64,000 nt of DNA, taken from the NCBI RefSeq assembly GCF_014652235.1, contig NZ_BMYK01000008.1:1-64000 (forward strand), read 5' to 3'. The stretch's first letter is position 1, and every line of letters begins with the position of its first letter. The notes beneath the pieces were generated by a model. The model searched no databases. It saw nothing but the letters and a program-made list of their open reading frames with translations, and had not been told where the DNA came from. The position numbers were made by a program, and so were the translations under genes. Shown one piece after another: positions 8,169 through 34,588 of the stretch. Origin of the DNA: Pseudorhodoferax aquiterrae (GTDB lineage: Bacteria; Pseudomonadota; Gammaproteobacteria; Burkholderiales; Burkholderiaceae_C).

Positions 8169-9190
8169 ACGACTTCGACTACGCCATGGCGCCTGACTCG
8201 GGCGCGGCCCTGGCTGCCTTGGGGCCAGACGCCAAGTTGATCGCCGGCGGTACCAACCTACTGGACCTTATGAAGGAAAACCTGCTGCGCCCAGCGCGGC
8301 TGGTCGACATCAACCGGCTGCCCCTCGCTGGAATCGAGGCGCTGGCCGATGGCGGCCTGCGTTTAGGCGCCCTGGCACGCAACGCAGCCACTGCCTATCA
8401 CCCCCTCGTGCGCGAGCGGTTGCCGCTGTTGTCCAGCGCCATCCTGGCAGGTGCCTCGCCACAGATCCGCAACATGGCCAGCAACGGCGGCAATCTGCTA
8501 CAGCGCACGCGCTGCTACTACTTCTACGATGCCGGTGTGCCATGCAACAAGCGTCAACCCGGCTCGGGTTGCCCGGCCATCGGCGGCCTGGCCCGGCAGC
8601 ACGCGATCCTGGGTGCCAGCGCACACTGCATTGCCACCCATCCCTCGGACATGTGCGTGGCACTGGCGGCGCTGGACGCTGTGGTGCACGTGCGGTCGTT
8701 GCGGGGGCCGCGGGAGATTCCGTTCGCGGCGTTCCACCGGCTGCCGGGCGACACGCCTGAGCTCGACAACACACTGGCGGACGACGAACTCATCGAGTAC
8801 ATCGTGGTGCCGGCATCTGAGCAGTACGCCGCCCATTCCGTCTATCTCAAGCTGCGTGAGCGCCAATCCTATGCATTCGCGCTGGTGTCCGTGGCCGCCG
8901 CGTTGGACCTTGACAGCGCAGGGCGGGTACGGAGCGCGCGCGTGGCGCTGGGCGGCGTGGCGCACAAGCCGTGGCGCGACCCGGCGGCAGAGGAACTGCT
9001 GTCGGGGCAGTTGCCGGACATCGCTGCATTTGAGCGCGTCGCCACTCGTCTGCTCCAGGGGGCGCAGCCGCAAGGTATCGGCGTGGGCAGCAATGTCTTC
9101 AAGCTTCCCATGGCACATCGGGCCATCGTGCGCGCGCTGGAGACGGCTATGCAGGGCACCGTGCGCAATACCGGGGAGAACCTCCAATGA
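8165..9190 (+). CDS. FAD-binding subunit of the PaoABC-type oxidoreductase
   Basis: A 341-residue FAD subunit starting at ATG 8165 (the open frame extends upstream, but this start overlaps the previous stop by 4 bases). FAD-binding signatures are LIAGGTNLLDLMKE near residue 25 and ASPQIRNMASNGGNLLQRTRC near 100. The insert with four cysteines, C-YYFYDAGVP-C-NKRQPGSG-C, matches the extra [4Fe-4S] loop of PaoB (YagS), placing the enzyme with the PaoABC subgroup rather than classical xanthine dehydrogenase. The stop overlaps the next ORF start by 4 bases. Confidence 0.92.
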   Translation: MNDFDYAMAPDSGAALAALGPDAKLIAGGTNLLDLMKENLLRPARLVDINRLPLAGIEALADGGLRLGALARNAATAYHPLVRERLPLLSSAILAGASPQIRNMASNGGNLLQRTRCYYFYDAGVPCNKRQPGSGCPAIGGLARQHAILGASAHCIATHPSDMCVALAALDAVVHVRSLRGPREIPFAAFHRLPGDTPELDNTLADDELIEYIVVPASEQYAAHSVYLKLRERQSYAFALVSVAAALDLDSAGRVRSARVALGGVAHKPWRDPAAEELLSGQLPDIAAFERVATRLLQGAQPQGIGVGSNVFKLPMAHRAIVRALETAMQGTVRNTGENLQ

Positions 9191-11544
9191 CGAGCCCTCA
9201 CAACGATGTGCAACCGGTGGCCGAGCCAGGCACGGGCTACGTGCGCAAAGGCGATGGCGTGCCGCGGGTGGACGGCCGTGCCAAGGTCACAGGCCAAGCG
9301 CGCTATGCTGCCGAGCACCTGGCAGACGGCATGATTTTCGGCGTGGTGGTCAATAGCACCATCGCCAAGGGCCGGATTGCGACGCTTCAGCTGGATGCGG
9401 CCAGGGCCGTACCTGGCGTGGTGGAGATCCTGTCGCATCTGAACCGCCCGCGCATGCGCAAACTCGACCTGTTCTACAAGGACATGACGGCGCCTGCCGG
9501 CTCACCGTTCAAGCCCTTCCACAGCGACGGCATCCTGTACAGCGGCCAGCCCATCGCCCTGGTGTTGGCCGACTCGTTCGAAGCTGCTCGCTACGCCGCC
9601 TCTCTGGTGCGAGTGCAGTATGTGCAGGAGGAGCACGAAACGCACCTGCTCTCCCACTTGGAGCGCAGCCACAAGCCGAGTCGGCTGAAGGCGGGCTTCT
9701 CGCCACCGCCCGACGAGACAGGCGATGCCCAGGCTGCGTTCGACGCCGCGCCGATGCAGGTCAGCGCAGAGTATTACGCCGGCGTGGAGCACCACAACCC
9801 GATGGAGATGCACGCCAGCACGGTGCTATGGGGCGAGGACGGCCATCTGACGGTCTACGACAAAAGCCAGAGTTCGCAGAACAGCCGTTGGATGGTCTCG
9901 CACGTGTTCGGTATTCCCAAGCACAGGCTGACCGTCAAGAACCCATTCGTCGGTGGCGCCTTCGGCTCCGGCCTGCGGCCACAGTACAACCTGATTCTTG
10001 CCGTGATGGCGGCCCTGCACCTCAAGCGCTCGGTGCGCGTGGTGCTGACGCGCCAGCAGATGTTCACCTTTGGCCACCGGCCCGAGACTTGGCAGCGCGT
10101 GCAGCTCGCGGCGCGGGCTGACGGCACCCTGGCTGCCGTGTTGCATGAGGCCATCGCCGAAACCGCCCGAATCGAGGACTACGTCGAAGTGGTCGTCAAC
10201 TGGTCGGGCCAGCTCTACAAGTGCGACAACGTCAAGCTGGGCTACCGGCTGGTGGCCTTGGACCATTACAGCCCCATCGACATGCGTGCGCCGGGCGCGG
10301 CGCACGGCATCCATGCACTCGAAGTGGCGATGGACGAATTGTCGTACGCGGTGGGCATGGACCCATTGGCCTTGCGTCTGCATAACTACAGCGAACGCGA
10401 CGAAGCGCAGGACCTGCCGTACTCGACCAAGGAGCTGCGCGCCTGCTACGAACAGGGCGCCGCGCGCTTTGGCTGGAGCCAGCGCCCCATGGCGCCGCGC
10501 TCGATGCGGGAAGGCCACGAGCTGATTGGCTGGGGCATGGCCACGGGTCAGTGGGACGCGATGCAAATGTTCGCGCGCGCTCATGCGGAGCTGCACGCCG
10601 ACGGCCGTCTAGTGGTCGGCAGCGCTGCCACCGACATCGGTACTGGCACCTACACCGTCATGGCCCAGATTGCTGCAGATGCGATGGGCCTGCAACTGGA
10701 AGACGTCGTGTTTCGCTTGGGCGATTCCACCCTGCCGGTAGCGCCCATCGAAGGCGGGTCCTCACACGTCGCTACGGTCGGCTCGGCCGTCGAAGGCGTC
10801 TGCGAAAAATTGCAGAAGAAGCTTTTCGCGCTGGCACGTCGACTGGACGACCTGCCCTTCGCCAAGGCGAGGTTCGCGGACGTGCAATTCCGTGAAGGCA
10901 GCATGGTGCTGCAGGGCGGCCCCGGCGGTTCCTGCGCCATTTCGCTGCAGCAGCTGCTGGCCCGCGCCGGCGAGACCAGAGTGGAGACCAAGTACCTGAT
11001 GCTGCCCAATATCCTCAAGCAGAAGAAGTACGTGCGGGCAACCCACTCGGCGGTGTTCTGCGAGGTGCGCGTGGACGAGGACTTCGGCACCGTGCGCGTG
11101 ACCCGTGTGGTCAGCGCCGTTGCGGCCGGCCGCATCATGAATCCGCAGCTGGCGCGCAGCCAGATCATGGGCGGCGTGGTCTGGGGCATTAGCCAGGCCC
11201 TGCACGAAGAGACCCATGCCGACCACCGCCTGGGCCGGTTCATGAACCACAGCCTGGCCGAGTACCACGTCGCCGTGCAGGCGGACGTCCACGACATCGA
11301 TGTGCTGTTCGTCGAGGAGGATGACCGCATCGTCAGCCGCCTGGGGGCCAAGGGTGTCGGCGAGATCGGCATGGTGGGCGTCGCCGCGGCAGTGACCAAT
11401 GCCATTTACCATGCTACCGGGCGACGCATCCGTTCCACGCCCATGACACCGGACAAGGTCATGACGCCGGGCATGGGATGGGAGGCGCGCGACAGCGCAG
11501 TAGGCATTGGCGTGGGTTTGGACCCGCGCAGTGTGGCGCGGTGA
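9187..11544 (+). CDS. Molybdopterin-binding catalytic subunit, xanthine dehydrogenase/aldehyde oxidase family
   Basis: A 785-residue large subunit. The N-terminal hammerhead domain begins near GKGVPRVDGRAKVTGQARYAAE-type sequence. Mo-cofactor blocks include NPFVGGAFGSGLRPQYN, DMRAPGAAHGIHALEVAMDEL and GGSSHVATVGSAV. The catalytic Glu is expected in GAKGVGEIGMVGV near the C-terminus. Related PaoC oxidises aromatic aldehydes using a molybdopterin cytosine dinucleotide cofactor; the substrate here is unknown. The three genes overlap stop to start, forming a tight operon. The XdhC/PaoD-type maturation factor that often follows is absent from the window; a broken hydrolase follows instead. Confidence 0.92.
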   Translation: MTSPHNDVQPVAEPGTGYVRKGDGVPRVDGRAKVTGQARYAAEHLADGMIFGVVVNSTIAKGRIATLQLDAARAVPGVVEILSHLNRPRMRKLDLFYKDMTAPAGSPFKPFHSDGILYSGQPIALVLADSFEAARYAASLVRVQYVQEEHETHLLSHLERSHKPSRLKAGFSPPPDETGDAQAAFDAAPMQVSAEYYAGVEHHNPMEMHASTVLWGEDGHLTVYDKSQSSQNSRWMVSHVFGIPKHRLTVKNPFVGGAFGSGLRPQYNLILAVMAALHLKRSVRVVLTRQQMFTFGHRPETWQRVQLAARADGTLAAVLHEAIAETARIEDYVEVVVNWSGQLYKCDNVKLGYRLVALDHYSPIDMRAPGAAHGIHALEVAMDELSYAVGMDPLALRLHNYSERDEAQDLPYSTKELRACYEQGAARFGWSQRPMAPRSMREGHELIGWGMATGQWDAMQMFARAHAELHADGRLVVGSAATDIGTGTYTVMAQIAADAMGLQLEDVVFRLGDSTLPVAPIEGGSSHVATVGSAVEGVCEKLQKKLFALARRLDDLPFAKARFADVQFREGSMVLQGGPGGSCAISLQQLLARAGETRVETKYLMLPNILKQKKYVRATHSAVFCEVRVDEDFGTVRVTRVVSAVAAGRIMNPQLARSQIMGGVVWGISQALHEETHADHRLGRFMNHSLAEYHVAVQADVHDIDVLFVEEDDRIVSRLGAKGVGEIGMVGVAAAVTNAIYHATGRRIRSTPMTPDKVMTPGMGWEARDSAVGIGVGLDPRSVAR

Positions 11545-19054: not shown

Positions 19055-20014
19055 CTACTGCGGCGTGACGATGGCGTGCCGGTAGTGCGGCCGCACCCGC
19101 CTGTCGAGGATGGCTTCCTGGGCCGCGAGGTCGCTGCGTGAGGGGTTCAGCCAAGCATCCAGGTCCGCGGGCTGGATGGGACAGATGCAGCGGTCGTGCC
19201 CTACTGCAGCGATTTCCGGTGGCGGGTCTTCCGTGATGAGCGCGAACGACAACAACTCGGGTTGACCAGGCCGGGACCACCGGGACCAGATGCAAGCGGC
19301 CAGGAGGTCCTGGGGTTCTTCGGGTCGGAACTCGACTTGCACCGTTCCAGGCGCTTGCTCGGGTGGGCGGTTCTCGGCGCGATGCCGCGGCACGTGTTCG
19401 TAGAACGCGCTGAGGACAACCACGCCGTGGTGGCTTCCGTACAGGTCTCGCCAAAACCCTTTCAAGCTGTCCCTGCGCGCGATGTAGCACCCCGGGTACT
19501 CCTTGTCGAAGCTCTCCGGCATGTTCCACGGCCGACAGCGGTACCGCATGGGCTTGAACACGCGCTGCCCGTTCTCCCAGACCATCACCGGCACATAGCT
19601 GCCCGGGAAAATCCGCGAATCCGACGCGTCGAGTTCCGCACGTTGGAGGTGGTCGATGCGCTCCTGGAATGCCGAAATCTTGTTGAGCGCGATGCGCCGG
19701 TCATCTGTGGCTGCTTTGGTTGTCTTCTTGGCCAGCTTCGCCTCGGCTGCGGCCAGCCGCTCTTGCTGCGCAGCCTGCTTCAGCCGGAGGTCCTCGACAT
19801 GCGCAGCGGCGTGCTGCGCAATCATGCTTCGGATTTCCCGCGCCTCGTCGGTCTCAGGCGAAGCAAATGCCGACTCGACGGCGCGCGGAACCACCATCGT
19901 TGGGTCGCCCAGGCGGCGCCAGAACAGGTCGAAGAAGTCCTTGATGCTCAGGACCGCACCGTACTCTCGGACGAACCGGCTGTAGTCGGCCTTGATTTGC
20001 GCGCTGTAGCACAT
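19055..20014 (-). CDS. SRAP-family protein (YedK/HMCES-like) with intact catalytic residues
   Basis: A 319-residue SOS-response-associated peptidase family protein. It begins MCYSAQIKADYS, giving the Cys2 that becomes N-terminal and forms a thiazolidine crosslink to abasic sites in single-stranded DNA. The acidic residue is in LSAFYEHVP, and the His is in AAVGHDRCICPI, aligned to the HDRMP motif of YedK. Compared with E. coli YedK (about 222 residues) it has an insertion of about 90 residues (about 45-135), Ala/Lys/Glu-rich and probably a coiled coil. A second copy at 33545 shares the insert but lacks Cys2 and the His. No LexA box is visible upstream. Confidence 0.88.
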   Translation of the reverse strand: MCYSAQIKADYSRFVREYGAVLSIKDFFDLFWRRLGDPTMVVPRAVESAFASPETDEAREIRSMIAQHAAAHVEDLRLKQAAQQERLAAAEAKLAKKTTKAATDDRRIALNKISAFQERIDHLQRAELDASDSRIFPGSYVPVMVWENGQRVFKPMRYRCRPWNMPESFDKEYPGCYIARRDSLKGFWRDLYGSHHGVVVLSAFYEHVPRHRAENRPPEQAPGTVQVEFRPEEPQDLLAACIWSRWSRPGQPELLSFALITEDPPPEIAAVGHDRCICPIQPADLDAWLNPSRSDLAAQEAILDRRVRPHYRHAIVTPQ

Positions 20015-20131: not shown

Positions 20132-20560
20132 CATGACGGCGCGCTCTCCATCTTCGTGGGATTGGCCTATACCCAACCGTGCGCAGCCGCGGACGGGTCG
20201 CGTCAGACGCAGCAGTAAGAAGGTCGTTTCGCGCGCCGAGATGGTCAAGGGCTACGAGGTTGAGCGCGACCACTTCGTCCTGTTCAGCCAGGACGAGCTC
20301 AAGGCGCGTGAGCAAGCCAGCAGTCATGTCATCGACACCGTGGCCTTCATCCCCGAAAAGACCGTCGACCCGCTGTACAACGACGGCCCTGAACTGGTCC
20401 CTGCGCAAGGTGCAACAGGAGCTGGGGATGTCCTGGCGCATCGTCGCGGGCTTCATGGCTGAAGGCTTCGTGCCTCCCACCAGAGTCGCGTGCAATCCGG
20501 TGCACTCGTTCCGCGACCGTTGCTGCTGCGCACTGTTCGGATGGCGAGCGAACTGCTAAA
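20132..20560 (+). pseudogene. Decayed second copy of the ku gene fused to its HTH partner
   Basis: From about 20215 the frame reads KKVVSRAEMVKGYEVERDHF, then VLFSQDELKAREQASSHVID and a further block to PEKTVDPLYN. This is nearly the same as an internal piece of the intact Ku at 28026. It then jumps, in shifting frames, to sequence matching the start of the Ku partner at 28955 (ELNWSLRKVQQELGMSWRIV, then MAEGFVPPTR). The Ku N-terminus is barely recognisable at 20132 and most of Ku's C-terminal half is deleted. So a former ku-HTH gene pair collapsed by internal deletion. Confidence 0.8.
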
Positions 20561-23974: not shown

Positions 23975-23994
23975 AACTGGATTGATATACAGTA
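23975..23994. promoter_or_regulatory. LexA-like box upstream of the UvrD-like helicase
   Basis: CTGG-ATTGATAT-ACAG matches CTGT-N8-ACAG with one mismatch (G for T in the left half) and has the AA/TA flanks of strong boxes. It ends 8 bases before the ATG at 24000, a layout like that of imuA. This suggests SOS induction of the helicase. Confidence 0.6.
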
Positions 23995-23999
23995 TATGC

Positions 24000-26117
24000 A
24001 TGTCATCCCTGTCCCCTAGCCCTACTGCCACGCCCGTGCTCGATAGGGAAGCGGCCCGGCGCTCTGACCCGTTCGCCGACCTCAATGCGGCTCAGCGTGC
24101 CGCCGTAGAGCACGGCACCGAGGCGGAGCCGGAGCTGCGCCCGCTGCTGGTGATCGCCGGTGCCGGTTCAGGCAAGACCAACACGCTGGCCCATCGCGTT
24201 GCCAGGCTGATCCTGCACGGCGCCGATCCCCAGCGCATGCTGTTGCTGACGTTCTCGCGCCGGGCGGCGCAGGAGATGGAGCAACGGGTCTCTGGTGTGC
24301 TGCGCCGCGTCCTGGGCGGCACCACGGCCCCGGCCGTCCTGCCTTGGTCCGGCACCTTCCACAGCGTCGGCGCGCGCCTGCTGCGCGAGTACGCAGGCCG
24401 CATCGGCCTGGAGGCCAACTTCACTATCTCGGACCGCGGCGACGCCGAGGACTTGTTGGGCCTGGTGCGCAACGACCTGGGCCTGACCCAGACCAGGAGC
24501 CGCTTCCCGCAGAAGGGCACCTGCCTGTCGATCTACTCGCGGGTGGTCAACACCCAGGCGCCGCTGGCCGAGGTGCTGCAGCAGACTTTCCCGTGGTGCA
24601 GCGCCTGGGAAGACGAACTGCGCCGCCTGTTCGGCGCCTACGTGGAGGCCAAGCAGCACCAGAACGTGCTCGACTACGACGACCTGCTGCTGTTCTGGTC
24701 CGAGATGATGGGCGAGCCCAGCCTGGCGGCCGAGGTCGGCGCCGCATTCGACCATGTGCTGGTCGACGAGTACCAGGACACCAACCGCCTGCAGGCGACC
24801 ATTCTGCTGGGCCTCAAGCCCGAGGGCACAGGCATGACCGTGGTGGGCGACGACGCCCAGTCCATCTACGCCTTCCGGGGTGCGACGGTGCGCAACATCC
24901 TGGACTTCCCGCACCAGTTCGGCCAGCCGGCCCGCAGTGTGGCGTTGGAACAGAACTACCGCTCGACCCAGCCTATCCTCGCGGTGTCCAACGCCGTGAT
25001 CGCAGCGGCCAGCGAGCGCCACGCGAAGACCCTGTGGACCGAGCGGCCCGGTGCGCAGCTGCCGCAGCTCGTCACCGTGCCGGACGAGGCCAGCGAAGCG
25101 CGCTGGGTCGCCGACCGCATCCTGGAGCACCGCGAGGCCGGCCTCACGCTGAAGTCGCAGGCGGTGCTCTTCCGTAGTTCTTCGCACAGCGCCGTGCTGG
25201 AGCTGGAGCTGACTCGGCGCAACATCCCTTTCGTGAAGTTCGGCGGCCTCAAGTTCCTGGAGGCCTCGCACGTGAAGGACCTGCTGGCCATCCTGCGCTT
25301 CGCGCAGAACCCGCGGGGCCGGTTGGCTGGGCTGCGCACGCTGCAGCTGATGCCGGGCATTGGACCGGTGACGGCCACGCGTGTGCTGGAAGCCATCGAG
25401 CAGGCCGCCGACCCGCGCGAGGCCGTGCAGGCCTTCGAGCCGCCGGCGGCCGCTGCAGCTGAATGGGCAGGCTTCGTGGCGCTGTTCCTGGCGATGCACA
25501 AGAGCAGCGGCGCGGCGACCTGGCCGGCCGAGGTCGGCTTGGCCAAGCGCTGGTACCTGCCACAGCTCGAGCGTCTGCACGACGACGCCGAGGCGCGCCG
25601 CGCCGACGTCGAGAACCTGGAGCGAATGGCCGCCGGCTACGCAGACCGCGAGCGCTTCCTGTCCGAACTCACACTCGACCCGCCCGAAGCCACGAGCGAC
25701 CAGGCCGGCCCCCCAGGCCGAGACGAGGACTATCTGATTCTGTCGACCATCCATTCGGCCAAGGGCCAGGAATGGAACGCCGTGTTCCTGCTGCGCGCGG
25801 TCGATGGCTGCATGCCCTCGGACCTGGGCACGGGCAGCAGCGCGGAGATCGACGAGGAGCGCCGGCTGCTTTACGTGGCGATGACCCGCGCCAAGGACCA
25901 TCTGCACGTGATGGTGCCGCACCGCTTCTACATCACGCAGCAGGGTTCGATGGGGGACCGCCACGTGTACGCGGCGCGCACGCGCTTCATCGCCGACAGC
26001 CTCCTGCCGCAGTTCGAAAGCATCTCCTGGCCGCAAGCGGCCGCGGGACACGGCCCGCGAGCACCGCAGACCGCCGTCATGCAGATTCGCGACAGGGCGA
26101 GGTCAGCATGGCGATGA
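24000..26117 (+). CDS. UvrD/PcrA-like ATP-dependent DNA helicase
   Basis: A 705-residue SF1A helicase from ATG 24000 (MSSLSPSPTATPVL). Motifs: Q-motif region DLNAAQRAAVEHG; I, VIAGAGSGKTNTLAHRVARLI; Ia, LLTFSRRAAQEM; II, VDEYQDTNRLQ; III, VVGDDAQSIYAFRGA; IV, ALEQNYRSTQPIL; V, LSTIHSAKGQEWNAVFL; VI, ERRLLYVAMTRAKDHLHV. The C-terminus is short. UvrD-type helicases unwind DNA in repair and strip RecA; this one is a paralogue rather than certainly the housekeeping uvrD. The LexA-like box just upstream supports a damage-inducible role. The last 10 bases overlap a small downstream gene. Confidence 0.9.
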   Translation: MSSLSPSPTATPVLDREAARRSDPFADLNAAQRAAVEHGTEAEPELRPLLVIAGAGSGKTNTLAHRVARLILHGADPQRMLLLTFSRRAAQEMEQRVSGVLRRVLGGTTAPAVLPWSGTFHSVGARLLREYAGRIGLEANFTISDRGDAEDLLGLVRNDLGLTQTRSRFPQKGTCLSIYSRVVNTQAPLAEVLQQTFPWCSAWEDELRRLFGAYVEAKQHQNVLDYDDLLLFWSEMMGEPSLAAEVGAAFDHVLVDEYQDTNRLQATILLGLKPEGTGMTVVGDDAQSIYAFRGATVRNILDFPHQFGQPARSVALEQNYRSTQPILAVSNAVIAAASERHAKTLWTERPGAQLPQLVTVPDEASEARWVADRILEHREAGLTLKSQAVLFRSSSHSAVLELELTRRNIPFVKFGGLKFLEASHVKDLLAILRFAQNPRGRLAGLRTLQLMPGIGPVTATRVLEAIEQAADPREAVQAFEPPAAAAAEWAGFVALFLAMHKSSGAATWPAEVGLAKRWYLPQLERLHDDAEARRADVENLERMAAGYADRERFLSELTLDPPEATSDQAGPPGRDEDYLILSTIHSAKGQEWNAVFLLRAVDGCMPSDLGTGSSAEIDEERRLLYVAMTRAKDHLHVMVPHRFYITQQGSMGDRHVYAARTRFIADSLLPQFESISWPQAAAGHGPRAPQTAVMQIRDRARSAWR

Positions 26118-27719: not shown

Positions 27720-27989
27720 ATGATGGGACGCACACCAAGCACCAGCGGAGAAGGCTCCAGACCGACCACCGACGGAACGGTTGCCAACATCGGCGCCGGC
27801 AGCAAGCTGGACGTCGGGCGCGCAGCGACTGGCGAGCCGAACAACGGGCCGGCGGATCCGGAGCGCATGCAGGACAAGCGGGCCGATGCGCAAGCCGCAG
27901 AGCATGACGATTCCGTGCCCCTGGGCTTGCAGGGCGACAAGCACCCCCAGTCCAACCAGGAGCCGCAGCCCCCATCGCGCAGGTCCTGA
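27720..27989 (+). CDS. Small hydrophilic, probably disordered protein
   Basis: An 89-residue protein (MMGRTPSTSGEGSRPTTDG...), rich in Gly, Pro, Asp, Gln and Ser, with no hydrophobic core and ending PQSNQEPQPPSRRS. It is preceded by GGAGGCG (ribosome-binding site) and lies 36 bases upstream of ku. Composition resembles small stress-associated hydrophilic proteins. Function unknown; it may be cotranscribed with ku. Confidence 0.5.
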   Translation: MMGRTPSTSGEGSRPTTDGTVANIGAGSKLDVGRAATGEPNNGPADPERMQDKRADAQAAEHDDSVPLGLQGDKHPQSNQEPQPPSRRS

Positions 27990-28025: not shown

Positions 28026-28958
28026 ATGGCGACCGCGCGCTCCATTGCATCGCTCACCCTGAGCTTCGGGCTCGTCAACATTCCTGTCCGCCTGTACTCG
28101 GCGACCGAATCGGGCTCGGACGTCCACTTCAACCTGCTGGCCAAGGATGGTTCGCGCCTGAAACAGCAGTACATCTCGGAAAAGACGCAGAAGGTCGTGC
28201 CCCGCTCCGAGATGATGAAGGGATACGAGGTCGAGAAAGACCACTTCGTGCTGTTCAGCCAGGATGAACTCAAAGCCTTGGAAGAAGCCAGCAGCCATGT
28301 CATCGACATCGTCGCGTTCATCCCCGAGAAGTCGGTGGACCCGCTGTACTACGACAAGGCCTACCTCCTCGCCCCGGACAAGCGCGGCGGCAAGCCCTAC
28401 CAGCTGCTGATGGCGGCCATGCGCAAGAGCGGCCGCTGTGCACTCGCCAAGTGGGCGTGGAAGGCAAAGCAGTACGTGGTGCAGATTCGGCCGGCTGAGG
28501 ACGGCCTGATTCTTCAGCAGCTGCGCTACGCCGATGAGGTACGCATGCCGAGCGCGCTGGGCATCGAGAAAACTGACGTCAGCAGCAGCGAGCTGCAGTT
28601 GGCCCTGCAGCTCATCGACCAGATCGCAGAGGACACCTACGACCCCGCGCAGTTCGCCGACGAAGAGAAGCAGCGCGTTCTCGCCGCCATCGACAAGAAG
28701 ATCGCTGGCAAGCAAATCGTCGCCTCGGCCCATCCGGAAGACGCAGTCGGGGGTGGACAGGTCGTTGACCTCATGGCCGCGCTGCAGGCCAGCCTCGGGA
28801 AGGGCAAGTCGGTGGGCAAGCCGTCCATCGCGAAGCGGTCATCGTCGCCCTCGAACGTGACGATCATGGACGATGCGAAGGCCCGCAAGACCGTCAAGCG
28901 CGCACCCAAGTCGGGGTCTGCGGAGCAAACGCCTCCGCGCACGAGGTCGCACAAGTGA
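28026..28958 (+). CDS. ku: Ku protein, non-homologous end-joining DNA end binder
   Basis: A 310-residue bacterial Ku, start supported by CGGAGG upstream. The core beta-barrel ring is present: MATARSIASLTLSFGLVNIP, VRLYSATESG...VHFNLL, KGYEVEKDHFVLFSQDELKAL, DIVAFIPEKSVDPLYYDKAYLL and SGRCALAKWAWKAKQYVVQIRP. Bacterial Ku homodimers thread onto DNA ends and recruit LigD; no ligD lies in the window. The C-terminal 60 residues are basic (KRSSSPSNV...KTVKRAPKSG...RSHK), like the extended tails that promote DNA binding. Its stop overlaps the start of the HTH/TPR gene (GTGA), indicating coupled translation. A decayed copy of the pair is at 20132. Confidence 0.95.
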   Translation: MATARSIASLTLSFGLVNIPVRLYSATESGSDVHFNLLAKDGSRLKQQYISEKTQKVVPRSEMMKGYEVEKDHFVLFSQDELKALEEASSHVIDIVAFIPEKSVDPLYYDKAYLLAPDKRGGKPYQLLMAAMRKSGRCALAKWAWKAKQYVVQIRPAEDGLILQQLRYADEVRMPSALGIEKTDVSSSELQLALQLIDQIAEDTYDPAQFADEEKQRVLAAIDKKIAGKQIVASAHPEDAVGGGQVVDLMAALQASLGKGKSVGKPSIAKRSSSPSNVTIMDDAKARKTVKRAPKSGSAEQTPPRTRSHK

Positions 28959-29827
28959 GCACACCCGCGAATCCGGAACTGAACTGGTCCCTGCGCCAGG
29001 TCGAGCAGAAGCTGCGCCTGTCCAGGCGCATCGTGACCGGCCTCATGGCCGAGGGCTTTGTGTCCCCGACCAGAGGCGCGCGCAACGCATTCCAGTTCTC
29101 GTTCCGCGATCTGGTGCTGCTGCGCACTGCCCATGGTCTGCGCAGCGCCCAGGTGCCTCCGCGGACGATTCTTCGAGCGCTTGGCAAGCTGCGCGCCGAG
29201 TTGCCACCATCGCTTCCGCTGACCGGTCTTCGCGTCACAGCCGATGGTGGCAATGTCGTGGTCTGGGACGATGAAGGTCCGCGCGACGCCTTGAGCGACC
29301 AGCTGATGCTGGACTTCAGGCTCGTTCCGGACGAGGACGATGGCTTGGTGGTCCTCGAGACCACCGTTCCGAGGGTACAACCGGTCGGCATGGGAGGACC
29401 ATCCCAGGCCGAACTTGCATTTAAGAGGGGCGAGCTCCTCGAAGATGTTGACCGCGCCGCTGCGGCCTCCGCGTACCGAGACGCGCTATCGCACGATCCG
29501 ACGCAGACGCATGCCGCCATCAACCTCGGTGCCATGCTCTGCGAGGAGAAGAAGTGCGAAGCAGCGCTGCAGGTGTTCGAGGAGGCGCGACGCAACGGCG
29601 TCCAGCACCCCCTGCTCCACTTCAACCATGGCGTGGTGCTGGAGGACCTCGACAGGCCCGACGAAGCCCTGCGTGCCTACGATGAGGCGCTGCGCCTGGA
29701 CCCGGTGTTCGCGGATGCGCATTTCAACGCTGGAATGCTGCGTCGCCAGCTTGGCGATGAACGTGGAGCGCTGCGACACCTCAATGCGTACCGCCGGCTG
29801 TACAACGACGCAGGGCGCGTGTCGTAG
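28955..29827 (+). CDS. MerR-like HTH plus TPR protein coupled to Ku
   Basis: A 290-residue protein starting GTG 28955 inside the ku stop. The N-terminus has a MerR-type winged-helix signature: WSLRQVEQKLRLSRRIVTGLMAEGFVSPTR, then FSFRDLVLLRTAHGLRSAQVPPRTILRALGKLR (about 8-80). A middle linker includes VVVWDDEGPRDALSDQLMLDF. The C-terminal half holds about three tetratricopeptide repeats (AELAFKRGELLEDVDRAAAASAYRDALSHDP; AAINLGAMLCEEKKCEAALQVFEEA; HFNHGVVLEDLDRPDEALRAYDEALRLDP). It may be a regulator or scaffold of the Ku pathway; that the broken copy at 20132 retains both genes side by side supports a functional pair. Confidence 0.8.
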   Translation: MSTPANPELNWSLRQVEQKLRLSRRIVTGLMAEGFVSPTRGARNAFQFSFRDLVLLRTAHGLRSAQVPPRTILRALGKLRAELPPSLPLTGLRVTADGGNVVVWDDEGPRDALSDQLMLDFRLVPDEDDGLVVLETTVPRVQPVGMGGPSQAELAFKRGELLEDVDRAAAASAYRDALSHDPTQTHAAINLGAMLCEEKKCEAALQVFEEARRNGVQHPLLHFNHGVVLEDLDRPDEALRAYDEALRLDPVFADAHFNAGMLRRQLGDERGALRHLNAYRRLYNDAGRVS

Positions 29828-33544: not shown

Positions 33545-34588
33545 ATGTATTCCGCAACCGTCTGGACCGACCCAAAGCTCTACGCCGGGCATTTCCAAGG
33601 TCACATCGACCTGAACGCGTTCCACGAAAGCTTCCGGCGGCGCGCGGCAGGTAATCGCGTTGCTATCCCGACCGAAGTGGACCAGGCGTTCCTTGACACG
33701 CAAGAGGCCGAACTTGAGCCCATCCGCGACCTGGTGATTCGACATCGGCTCGCACAAATTCAGGCCGCCGACGAAGAGATCGCATCGCAAGTGGCACGGT
33801 TGGCTGACGCGCAGCACCGCCTCGGGTCGAAGGAAGCGAAGGCCGCCGGGCACAGCGCGCGCATGTCCATGCACAAGATTGCGGCGGCGCGGCGACGTCG
33901 CGCTTCACTCGCTCAGAACGTGGATGGATGCCAGCTTGGGCGGATGTTTCCAGGAAGCTTCGTGCCGATCGTGACCGTCCAGGACGGCCAGACGCTCATC
34001 AGGCCCATGCGATACCAATGCAGGCCCTCCAGCGTCGAGCGTCGCATGGAGAACCTGCTGGAGAGCCCGCACCATGCGCGCAAGGACTGCCTGCAAGGTC
34101 GATGGCGGACGGAGTTCGGCCACACGCACGGAGTGATCGCCGTCGAGTCGCTCTTCGAAGCGGTTGCGCTCCATCGCCTGCGAAACCGCCAGCTCCTGAG
34201 AGGTGAAGGCTTGGCCGCACTCGAGCTGGAGTTCCTTCCCACCCCGCGCCAGACCTTGTACGTGGCGTGCCTGTGGTCCCATTGGCAACGACCTGGCAGA
34301 GCCGACTTGCTGTCTTTTGCGACCATCGTCGACAGGGCTCCAGCCGAGGTCCAAGCCGCTGGACAGGACATCTGCCCCGTGGTGATCAAGCAGGAGAATG
34401 TCAATGCCTGGCTCAACCCGGATCCGACGGACCTTGCTGCCAGCCTTGCGATCTTGGAGGATCGCCCCGCGGTTTCGTACGAGCACTTTCCGTCTTCGGC
34501 CGAGCGGGAGCGTCTTGCCCGTCCGGCGCCGGCAAAAATCATCAACCTCTGGAAACCGCCTCAATCGAGGAGCCCGCTGGCGGCATAG
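33545..34588 (+). CDS. SRAP-family paralogue lacking catalytic Cys2 and His
   Basis: A 347-residue paralogue of the SRAP protein at 19055, sharing its inserted helical segment (about 50-125: ELEPIRDLVIRHRLAQIQAADEEIASQ...KIAAARRRRAS) and the blocks FPGSFVPIVTVQDGQ...RPMRYQCRP, HGVIAVESLFEAVALHR and VNAWLNPDPTDLAASLAILEDRP. It begins MYSATVWTDPK where the active copy has MCYSAQ, so the N-terminal Cys is missing. The His of GHDR is replaced in AAGQDICPV. It therefore should not form the abasic-site crosslink of YedK/HMCES; it may bind DNA non-covalently or be non-functional. Longer upstream starts do not restore a Cys2. Confidence 0.8.
   Translation: MYSATVWTDPKLYAGHFQGHIDLNAFHESFRRRAAGNRVAIPTEVDQAFLDTQEAELEPIRDLVIRHRLAQIQAADEEIASQVARLADAQHRLGSKEAKAAGHSARMSMHKIAAARRRRASLAQNVDGCQLGRMFPGSFVPIVTVQDGQTLIRPMRYQCRPSSVERRMENLLESPHHARKDCLQGRWRTEFGHTHGVIAVESLFEAVALHRLRNRQLLRGEGLAALELEFLPTPRQTLYVACLWSHWQRPGRADLLSFATIVDRAPAEVQAAGQDICPVVIKQENVNAWLNPDPTDLAASLAILEDRPAVSYEHFPSSAERERLARPAPAKIINLWKPPQSRSPLAA

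What the first reader, a model, noticed from the sequence alone, without database searches (positions are those of the whole stretch)
28026..29827. Ku translationally coupled to a MerR-HTH/TPR protein, with a decayed second copy of the same pair
Seen: the ku stop overlaps the partner start (GTGA), and the partner combines a MerR-type HTH with about three TPRs. At 20132-20560 a collapsed locus contains an internal Ku segment followed directly by the partner's N-terminal segment. Known: bacterial NHEJ usually needs Ku and LigD; a fused HTH/TPR partner is not a textbook component. Inference: the pair travels as a unit and the partner may regulate or scaffold Ku-dependent end joining. Hydrophilic ORF 27720-27989 may belong to the same unit.
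Basis: partly seen in the sequence, partly recalled or inferred. Interest (0 to 1): 0.7.

Follow-up and report, generated by a model that had tools for sequence, protein, structure and literature searches.

The report
Third gene of bacterial end-joining operons
Beside the gene for Ku, the protein that caps broken DNA ends, some bacteria carry a second, nearly inseparable gene for a protein with a DNA-binding-like head and a protein-binding tail, which suggests that their DNA-break repair may use a third part.

Summary
A remnant at 20191-20535 keeps an internal Ku piece followed directly by the partner's N-terminal piece.

The proposed refutation failed. Outside this genome the samples gave 60 partner copies in 57 genomes; of 59 whose upstream DNA could be read, 58 follow a ku (one after a ligase gene). 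Of 33 plasmid records with the partner, 32 have ku upstream and one has ku fragments. One orphan lies in a genome with no detected ku. In a 369-genome sample the partner occurs in 10 of 31 ku-positive and 0 of 338 ku-negative genomes. It goes with one Ku clade; ligD-ku-partner is a common order.

Best reading (about 0.5): a dedicated third NHEJ component, a Ku-binding adaptor. Its TPRs may dock on the Ku tail, where this clade carries a basic motif; its head is a MerR-like winged helix with an atypical recognition helix. A far relative adds a BRCT domain and follows ku and an ATP-dependent ligase. A regulator of ku is the main rival. No binding or repair was tested, and the structure model failed for the head. 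ORF 27720-27989 is not part of the unit.

The parts
28026..28958 (+). ku, bacterial Ku, 310 aa, with basic C-terminal tail holding ARKTVKRAPK
   Evidence: TIGR02772 272.6 bits; Pfam Ku; tail compared
28955..29827 (+). partner, 290 aa: MerR-like winged helix, beta-like segment, TPRs
   Evidence: start overlaps ku stop by 4 nt
28955..28958 (+). GTGA overlap of ku stop and partner start
   Evidence: the same 4-nt overlap in 10 of 14 distinct intact pairs examined, this one included
28985..29183 (+). MerR-like winged helix-turn-helix (about residues 11-76)
   Evidence: GlnR alignment; conservation over 73 rows
29210..29323 (+). conserved segment LPLTGLRxTAxGxxVxV...QLMLDF after the HTH, no Pfam family found
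   Evidence: also in the ku-less relatives; strands come from a low-confidence model
29438..29815 (+). TPR repeats and capping helix (about residues 162-287)
   Evidence: model blocks with pLDDT 76-95 in residues 171-280
20191..20384 (+). remnant of ku (internal segment)
20389..20535 (+). remnant of partner (N-terminal segment)

Best explanation
The partner is a dedicated third component of a bacterial non-homologous end-joining system, made together with Ku. SHOWN: it is a near-obligate neighbour of one clade of Ku, often overlapping ku by 4 nt, often in the order ligD-ku-partner, and under purifying selection in the pairs tested. INFERRED: translation of the two is coupled; the partner binds Ku through its mostly acidic TPR domain, most simply at the basic Ku tail; its basic head touches DNA near the break without a fixed target sequence, so that it holds Ku, LigD and the two ends together or controls when LigD is recruited. 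Working comparison: the Ku-binding accessory factors of eukaryotic NHEJ (APLF, PAXX, XLF; recalled, no homology claimed).
For: Linkage: 58 of 59 testable copies outside this genome next to ku. Class sample: partner in 10 of 31 ku+ and 0 of 338 ku- genomes, p 4e-12. Plasmids: 32 of 33 records with ku upstream, 1 with ku fragments. Ku tree: 29 of 30 partner-linked Ku rows in one group of 32, SH-aLRT 98. Ku-partner distance correlation 0.82 over 28 pairs, 0 of 5000 permutations as high. dN/dS of partner 0.10-0.14 in three comparisons. LigD or ATP-dependent ligase in 20 of 24 fetched neighbourhoods, ligD-ku-partner on one strand in 11 of 24; pairs without nearby LigD also exist, so the bond is to ku. 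G448: Ku, ATP-dependent ligase, then a BRCT-MerR-TPR protein. Ku tail motif in 35 of 45 partner-linked against 2 of 43 other Ku, shuffles expect about 1 in each; 22 of 28 further partner-linked tails. Mean charge: head +7, TPR part -5 over 44 rows. The aromatic pair of the MerR recognition helix is replaced by mostly G/S and L over 73 rows, which suits structural rather than operator-specific binding.
Against: No interaction, structure or phenotype was tested. Linkage and overlap fit a regulator as well. The tail motif was chosen after seeing the tails, and the Ku that carry it are mostly one clade, so it may be inherited rather than functional; no new negative set was tried, and the stricter form of the motif is in only 26 of 45 and 11 of 28. 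The G448 Ku lacks it. The recognition-helix arginine is kept in 33 of 73 rows. Three Ku of that clade have no partner found (G030 genome; a C. pinatubonensis and a Gemmatirosa plasmid record), so Ku can do without it. One partner (G1182) is an orphan in a genome without detected ku. The TPR part is not acidic in every row (range -10 to +7; the two highest are fragments, and four full rows are +1 to +3).
Confidence: 0.5

Rival explanations
1. The partner is a transcriptional regulator of the ku(-ligD) operon: the MerR-like head binds the promoter, and the TPRs sense a protein or peptide signal (possibly Ku itself).
For: MerR_1 matches in 16 of 16 alignment rows; annotated as a MerR family regulator on one plasmid. 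About half of the heads keep the recognition-helix arginine (33 of 73). HTH+TPR regulators exist (RNPP family, recalled). Overlapping genes suit autoregulation.
Against: No inverted repeat shared within 320 bases upstream of four ku genes (window and three whose partners are 84-93% identical to the window's); the upstream DNA of the two lineages does not align. The aromatic pair kept as Y-W in 8 of 8 rows of the ku-less relatives is absent from the common letters here except F in 8 of 73 at one position. The Ku-tail motif is unexplained. The operator could still lie further upstream or before ligD.
Confidence: 0.28
2. The partner is a stoichiometric brake on Ku: joint synthesis titrates Ku so that it does not block recombination or replication restart.
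For: Overlapping reading frames and joint decay of both genes in remnants. Toxicity of free Ku is an assumption.
Against: Three Ku of the clade have no partner found, and an orphan partner exists. The BRCT-bearing relative in G448 looks more like assembly than inhibition.
Confidence: 0.13
3. Passenger linkage: the genes are adjacent because they ride on plasmids and islands together, without joint function.
For: 33 plasmid records; several copies in some genomes.
Against: Order and closeness kept across several family groups of the class while the flanks change; purifying selection; correlated divergence.
Confidence: 0.05

Closest known systems
Bacterial Ku-LigD NHEJ (TIGR02772 Ku with LigD)
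   Same: Ku is a full TIGR02772 member; LigD lies near many of the pairs (20 of 24 fetched neighbourhoods).
   Different: The known minimal system has two proteins; here a third gene is near-obligately tied to one Ku clade.
MerR-family regulators (Pfam MerR_1; GlnR as best solved sequence, E 0.099)
   Same: Winged-helix scaffold and wing with mostly conserved arginines (82-83% of 73 rows).
   Different: Aromatic pair of the recognition helix replaced; followed by an unnamed segment and TPRs; no shared palindrome found upstream of ku.
MerR-like proteins with open frames of 163-244 aa in ku-less genomes, 4 of 6 viewed beside a ParA-like ATPase
   Same: Same head and same segment after it.
   Different: The one scanned has no TPR; genomes without ku; recognition helix with Y-W in 8 of 8 rows.
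Eukaryotic Ku-binding accessory factors APLF, PAXX, XLF (recalled)
   Same: Proposed role: Ku-bound adaptor.
   Different: No sequence relationship shown or sought; other folds by recollection.
RNPP regulators (HTH + TPR, Firmicutes; recalled)
   Same: HTH joined to TPRs.
   Different: Different HTH type by recollection; linked here to ku.

Membership tests
Bacterial Ku (TIGR02772) | Score over the curated cut-off across the whole model | tested here: met
   272.6 bits against 150, model positions 1-259 of 259
Bacterial NHEJ operon | ATP-dependent ligase D encoded with ku | tested here: met
   Not met at the window pair itself (none in window 17001-40000), but a LigD lies about 3.5 kb from the C44 pair and in 20 of 24 fetched neighbourhoods; four LigD polymerase domains in this genome
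MerR-family transcriptional regulator | MerR winged helix-turn-helix | tested here: met
   16 of 16 rows match MerR_1 at E <= 0.1; the window copy alone is under the Pfam cut-off; the G448 relative is over it
MerR-family transcriptional regulator | Recognition-helix residues of the LRYYE kind (motif recalled; seen in GlnR) | tested here: not met
   R kept in 33 of 73 rows, aromatic pair replaced; Y-W in 8 of 8 rows of the ku-less relatives
MerR-family transcriptional regulator | Dyad operator in the promoter of the controlled gene | tested here: inconclusive
   No shared palindrome within 320 bases upstream of four ku genes; promoters not mapped
MerR-family transcriptional regulator | C-terminal dimerisation helix and effector domain | tested here: inconclusive
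   C-terminal part is TPRs; the head was not modelled
Third NHEJ component (proposed) | Physical binding to Ku or LigD and effect on end joining | not testable with these tools
   needs bench work

The most novel reading that the evidence does not exclude
A Ku-dedicated adaptor exists in Burkholderiales and other members of the window's class, so bacterial NHEJ is not always a two-protein system. Its TPR domain reads a basic motif in the Ku tail and its altered winged helix grips DNA at the break: a bacterial counterpart, by function, of APLF/PAXX/XLF.
Probability: 0.45. Interest if true: 0.8.

Novelty: new variant of a known kind. Interest (0 to 1): 0.63.

Why it matters
Bacterial NHEJ is described as Ku plus LigD (beginnings of the abstracts of PMC12784961 and PMC5124664, seen in search listings). 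A third gene that was found without ku only once in 59 readable cases, and that marks one Ku clade, makes a direct question testable: what does this system need beyond the two-protein kit? It also offers a candidate for better NHEJ-based genome editing in bacteria, and a role for proteins now called 'tetratricopeptide repeat protein' beside ku on plasmids.

Tried and rejected
The small ORF 27720-27989 as part of the unit: rejected. Phage or virus carriage: no match in 50,697 phage records, none confirmed in viral contigs. Solved structures: only GlnR at E 0.099 and two acetyltransferase chains at E 0.57-0.59. Promoter palindromes: none shared. Left out of the partner count as different proteins: ten weak class-level hits (open frames of 163-244 aa; six viewed, one scanned) and one order-level hit, G1043. 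Other phyla were hardly surveyed: the one genome-contig scan returned two close relatives, the genome samples lie within the window's phylum, and the plasmid hits were all in Cupriavidus, Paraburkholderia, Caballeronia, Variovorax and Burkholderia.

Literature: the listings (open PMC papers only) showed nothing on a MerR/TPR partner of Ku, but some were capped (20 of 34 shown, 12 of 40, 12 of 65). The one paper holding LigD, tetratricopeptide and Ku protein (PMC10345425) was not opened. Passages of PMC7719229, PMC11936186, PMC3765255 and PMC5862659 were seen; the terms sought in PMC8656161 were not found. PMC311082 is not held. This is no proof that nothing is in print.

Full report
WHAT IS THERE. 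In the window, ku (28026-28958) is followed by a 290-residue protein gene (28955-29827) whose GTG start overlaps the ku stop as GTGA. Ku is a full member of TIGR02772. The partner has a MerR-like winged helix (weak in this copy, but present in 16 of 16 alignment rows), then a conserved segment without a Pfam match, then TPRs. At 20191-20535 a remnant keeps Ku residues 50-115 followed by partner residues 9-56. The genome, 7.1 Mb in 94 contigs, also has a second intact pair on contig C44 (85% and 84% aa identical), a partner-less ku of another type on C28 (33%), and four LigD polymerase domains, one in a LigD about 3.5 kb from the C44 pair. The remnant is nearer to the C44 pair than to the window pair. 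The window probably comes from a Variovorax: a same-genus genome (G069) has a contig of exactly the length of V. boronicumulans DE0202 NZ_VEDO01000024.1; this is inference. L022, L131 and L037 are thus taken as one locus and counted once.

Window's family, 150 genomes: partner in 14, Ku in 43. Ku falls into a near type (52-100% identity to this Ku, 14 genomes) and a far type (27-37%). Of the 14 near-type genomes 13 have the partner, directly downstream of ku; the exception is G030, where a LigD gene follows. One more partner (G104) lies at a contig end, so its upstream neighbour cannot be read. In G071 the ku lacks its 5' part and its remainder runs in frame into the partner. Class, 369 genomes: 20 matches, namely own, 8 strong, the G448 variant, and 10 weak ones in genomes without ku. 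All 9 partner-type copies outside own follow ku, G448 with a ligase gene between. Ku itself is in 31 of the 369: partner in 10 of 31 ku+ and 0 of 338 ku- (Fisher 4e-12). Phylum, 398 genomes: own, G748 (two copies) and G814, all beside ku. Order, 280 genomes: 20 matches, namely own, G748, G814, G1043 (a different MerR-like protein, no ku near) and 16 new genomes, all 16 beside ku. Family of G422, 100 genomes: 18 matches, 17 of them new genomes with 19 copies; 18 of these copies are beside ku, and the orphan is G1182, in which no ku was found (96% complete). Sum outside the own genome: 60 copies in 57 genomes; 59 testable; 58 follow ku. A few partner frames are broken or cut (G968 and G154 at contig ends, G924, one copy of G1221). 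Pseudorhodoferax soli also has the pair and is not in this sum. The samples are not independent draws, and related genomes share ancestry.

PLASMIDS. 33 of 72,556 records carry the partner, in 34 places; I compared the best place of each record. 32 have ku on the same strand directly upstream by coordinates (one across the record start), and one (NZ_AP023181) has only ku fragments. The second place in NZ_CP084287 was not checked. Some plasmids repeat genomes already counted. Three Ku of the same clade have no partner found: in the G030 genome, and on the records NZ_CP080768 (C. pinatubonensis) and NZ_CP007130 (Gemmatirosa). No phage record matches.

OPERON. In 10 of 14 distinct intact pairs examined, the window's included, the overlap is the same 4 nt; one overlaps by 1 nt and three have short gaps or unsure starts. 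Of 24 fetched neighbourhoods other than the window, 20 hold a LigD or ATP-dependent ligase gene, and in 11 the order is ligD-ku-partner on one strand, as on C. necator pBB2. Pairs without nearby LigD occur, so the partner belongs to ku rather than to ligD.

EVOLUTION. In a quick tree of 74 Ku rows, 29 of 30 partner-linked Ku lie in one group of 32 (SH-aLRT 98); the other is G448, a long branch of unsure place. The label needs 5 changes against 23.5 in shuffles. The G448 locus also enters once as L170, labelled none only because that stretch is short. Ku and partner distances correlate at r 0.82 over 28 pairs, 0 of 5000 permutations as high; two of the 30 pairs were left out as fragments. dN/dS is 0.10-0.14 for the partner and 0.07-0.12 for ku in three comparisons each.

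CLUES TO MECHANISM. (a) Ku tails: a loose pattern like RKxPKRA lies 20-30 residues from the end in 35 of 45 partner-linked Ku and 2 of 43 others, one of the two being the partner-less C. pinatubonensis Ku; shuffles expect about 1 in each set; a stricter form is in 26 of 45 and 1 of 43. The pattern was made after looking. In tails not used to make it, 8 of 10 plasmid Ku (one identical to an earlier row) and 14 of 18 of the G422 family (two identical) match the loose form, and 7 and 4 the strict form. No further negatives were tested. (b) The head is basic (+7 on average), the TPR part mostly acidic (-5 on average; 44 rows, some fragments, four full rows slightly positive). (c) In 73 heads (not all independent) the recognition-helix arginine is kept in 33, but the aromatic pair is replaced, while wing arginines and core stay; the ku-less relatives keep Y-W in 8 of 8 rows. 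(d) Four ku genes, the window's and three whose partners are 84-93% identical, share no palindrome in 320 bases upstream. (e) In G448 a 355-residue relative carries BRCT, MerR and TPR (each over Pfam cut-offs) behind ku and an ATP-dependent ligase; it was the only such protein in the 24 genomes of its order searched, where the other hits were partial. Together these lean to an adaptor at the break and away from a classical promoter-bound MerR regulator, but none is a functional test.

LIMITS. The structure model is useless for residues 1-164. Phyla other than the window's were hardly surveyed. The literature search covers open PMC papers only.

Noticed in passing
L078-L087 (class hits): MerR-like proteins with the same head and following segment, in genomes without ku; of the six viewed, four (L078, L079, L083, L086) lie beside a ParA-like ATPase; the L078 ATPase has a C-terminal AMPK1_CBM domain. 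An unnamed pair of its own.
   Followed up: partly
window 19055-20014 (-): SRAP gene beside the ku-partner remnant (59.9 bits); genes annotated as SOS response-associated peptidase also lie near pairs on C. necator pBB2, P. terrae pPT365 and Caballeronia Lep1P3 p3. SRAP(DUF159)-Ku neighbourhoods were noted before in PMC3765255 (passage seen).
   Followed up: partly
window 33548-34486 (+): A second SRAP-like stretch, 35% identical to the first.
   Followed up: no
window 23982-26117 (+): UvrD/Rep-type helicase; a 94% identical gene lies near the same pair in G069/V. boronicumulans.
   Followed up: no
L034 (G071): ku lacks its 5' part, with transposase-like sequence (by eye) on the other strand; its remainder is in one open frame with the partner.
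   Followed up: no
L124 (NZ_AP023181): Shortened partner frame (247 aa) with degenerate ku fragments about 0.9 kb upstream.
   Followed up: no
L225 (G1182) 8659-9681: Orphan partner with a changed C-terminal end beside a universal-stress-like gene (by eye), in a genome with no ku found.
   Followed up: partly
L176 (G319): Two very divergent Ku genes in tandem without partner, longest branches of the Ku tree.
   Followed up: no
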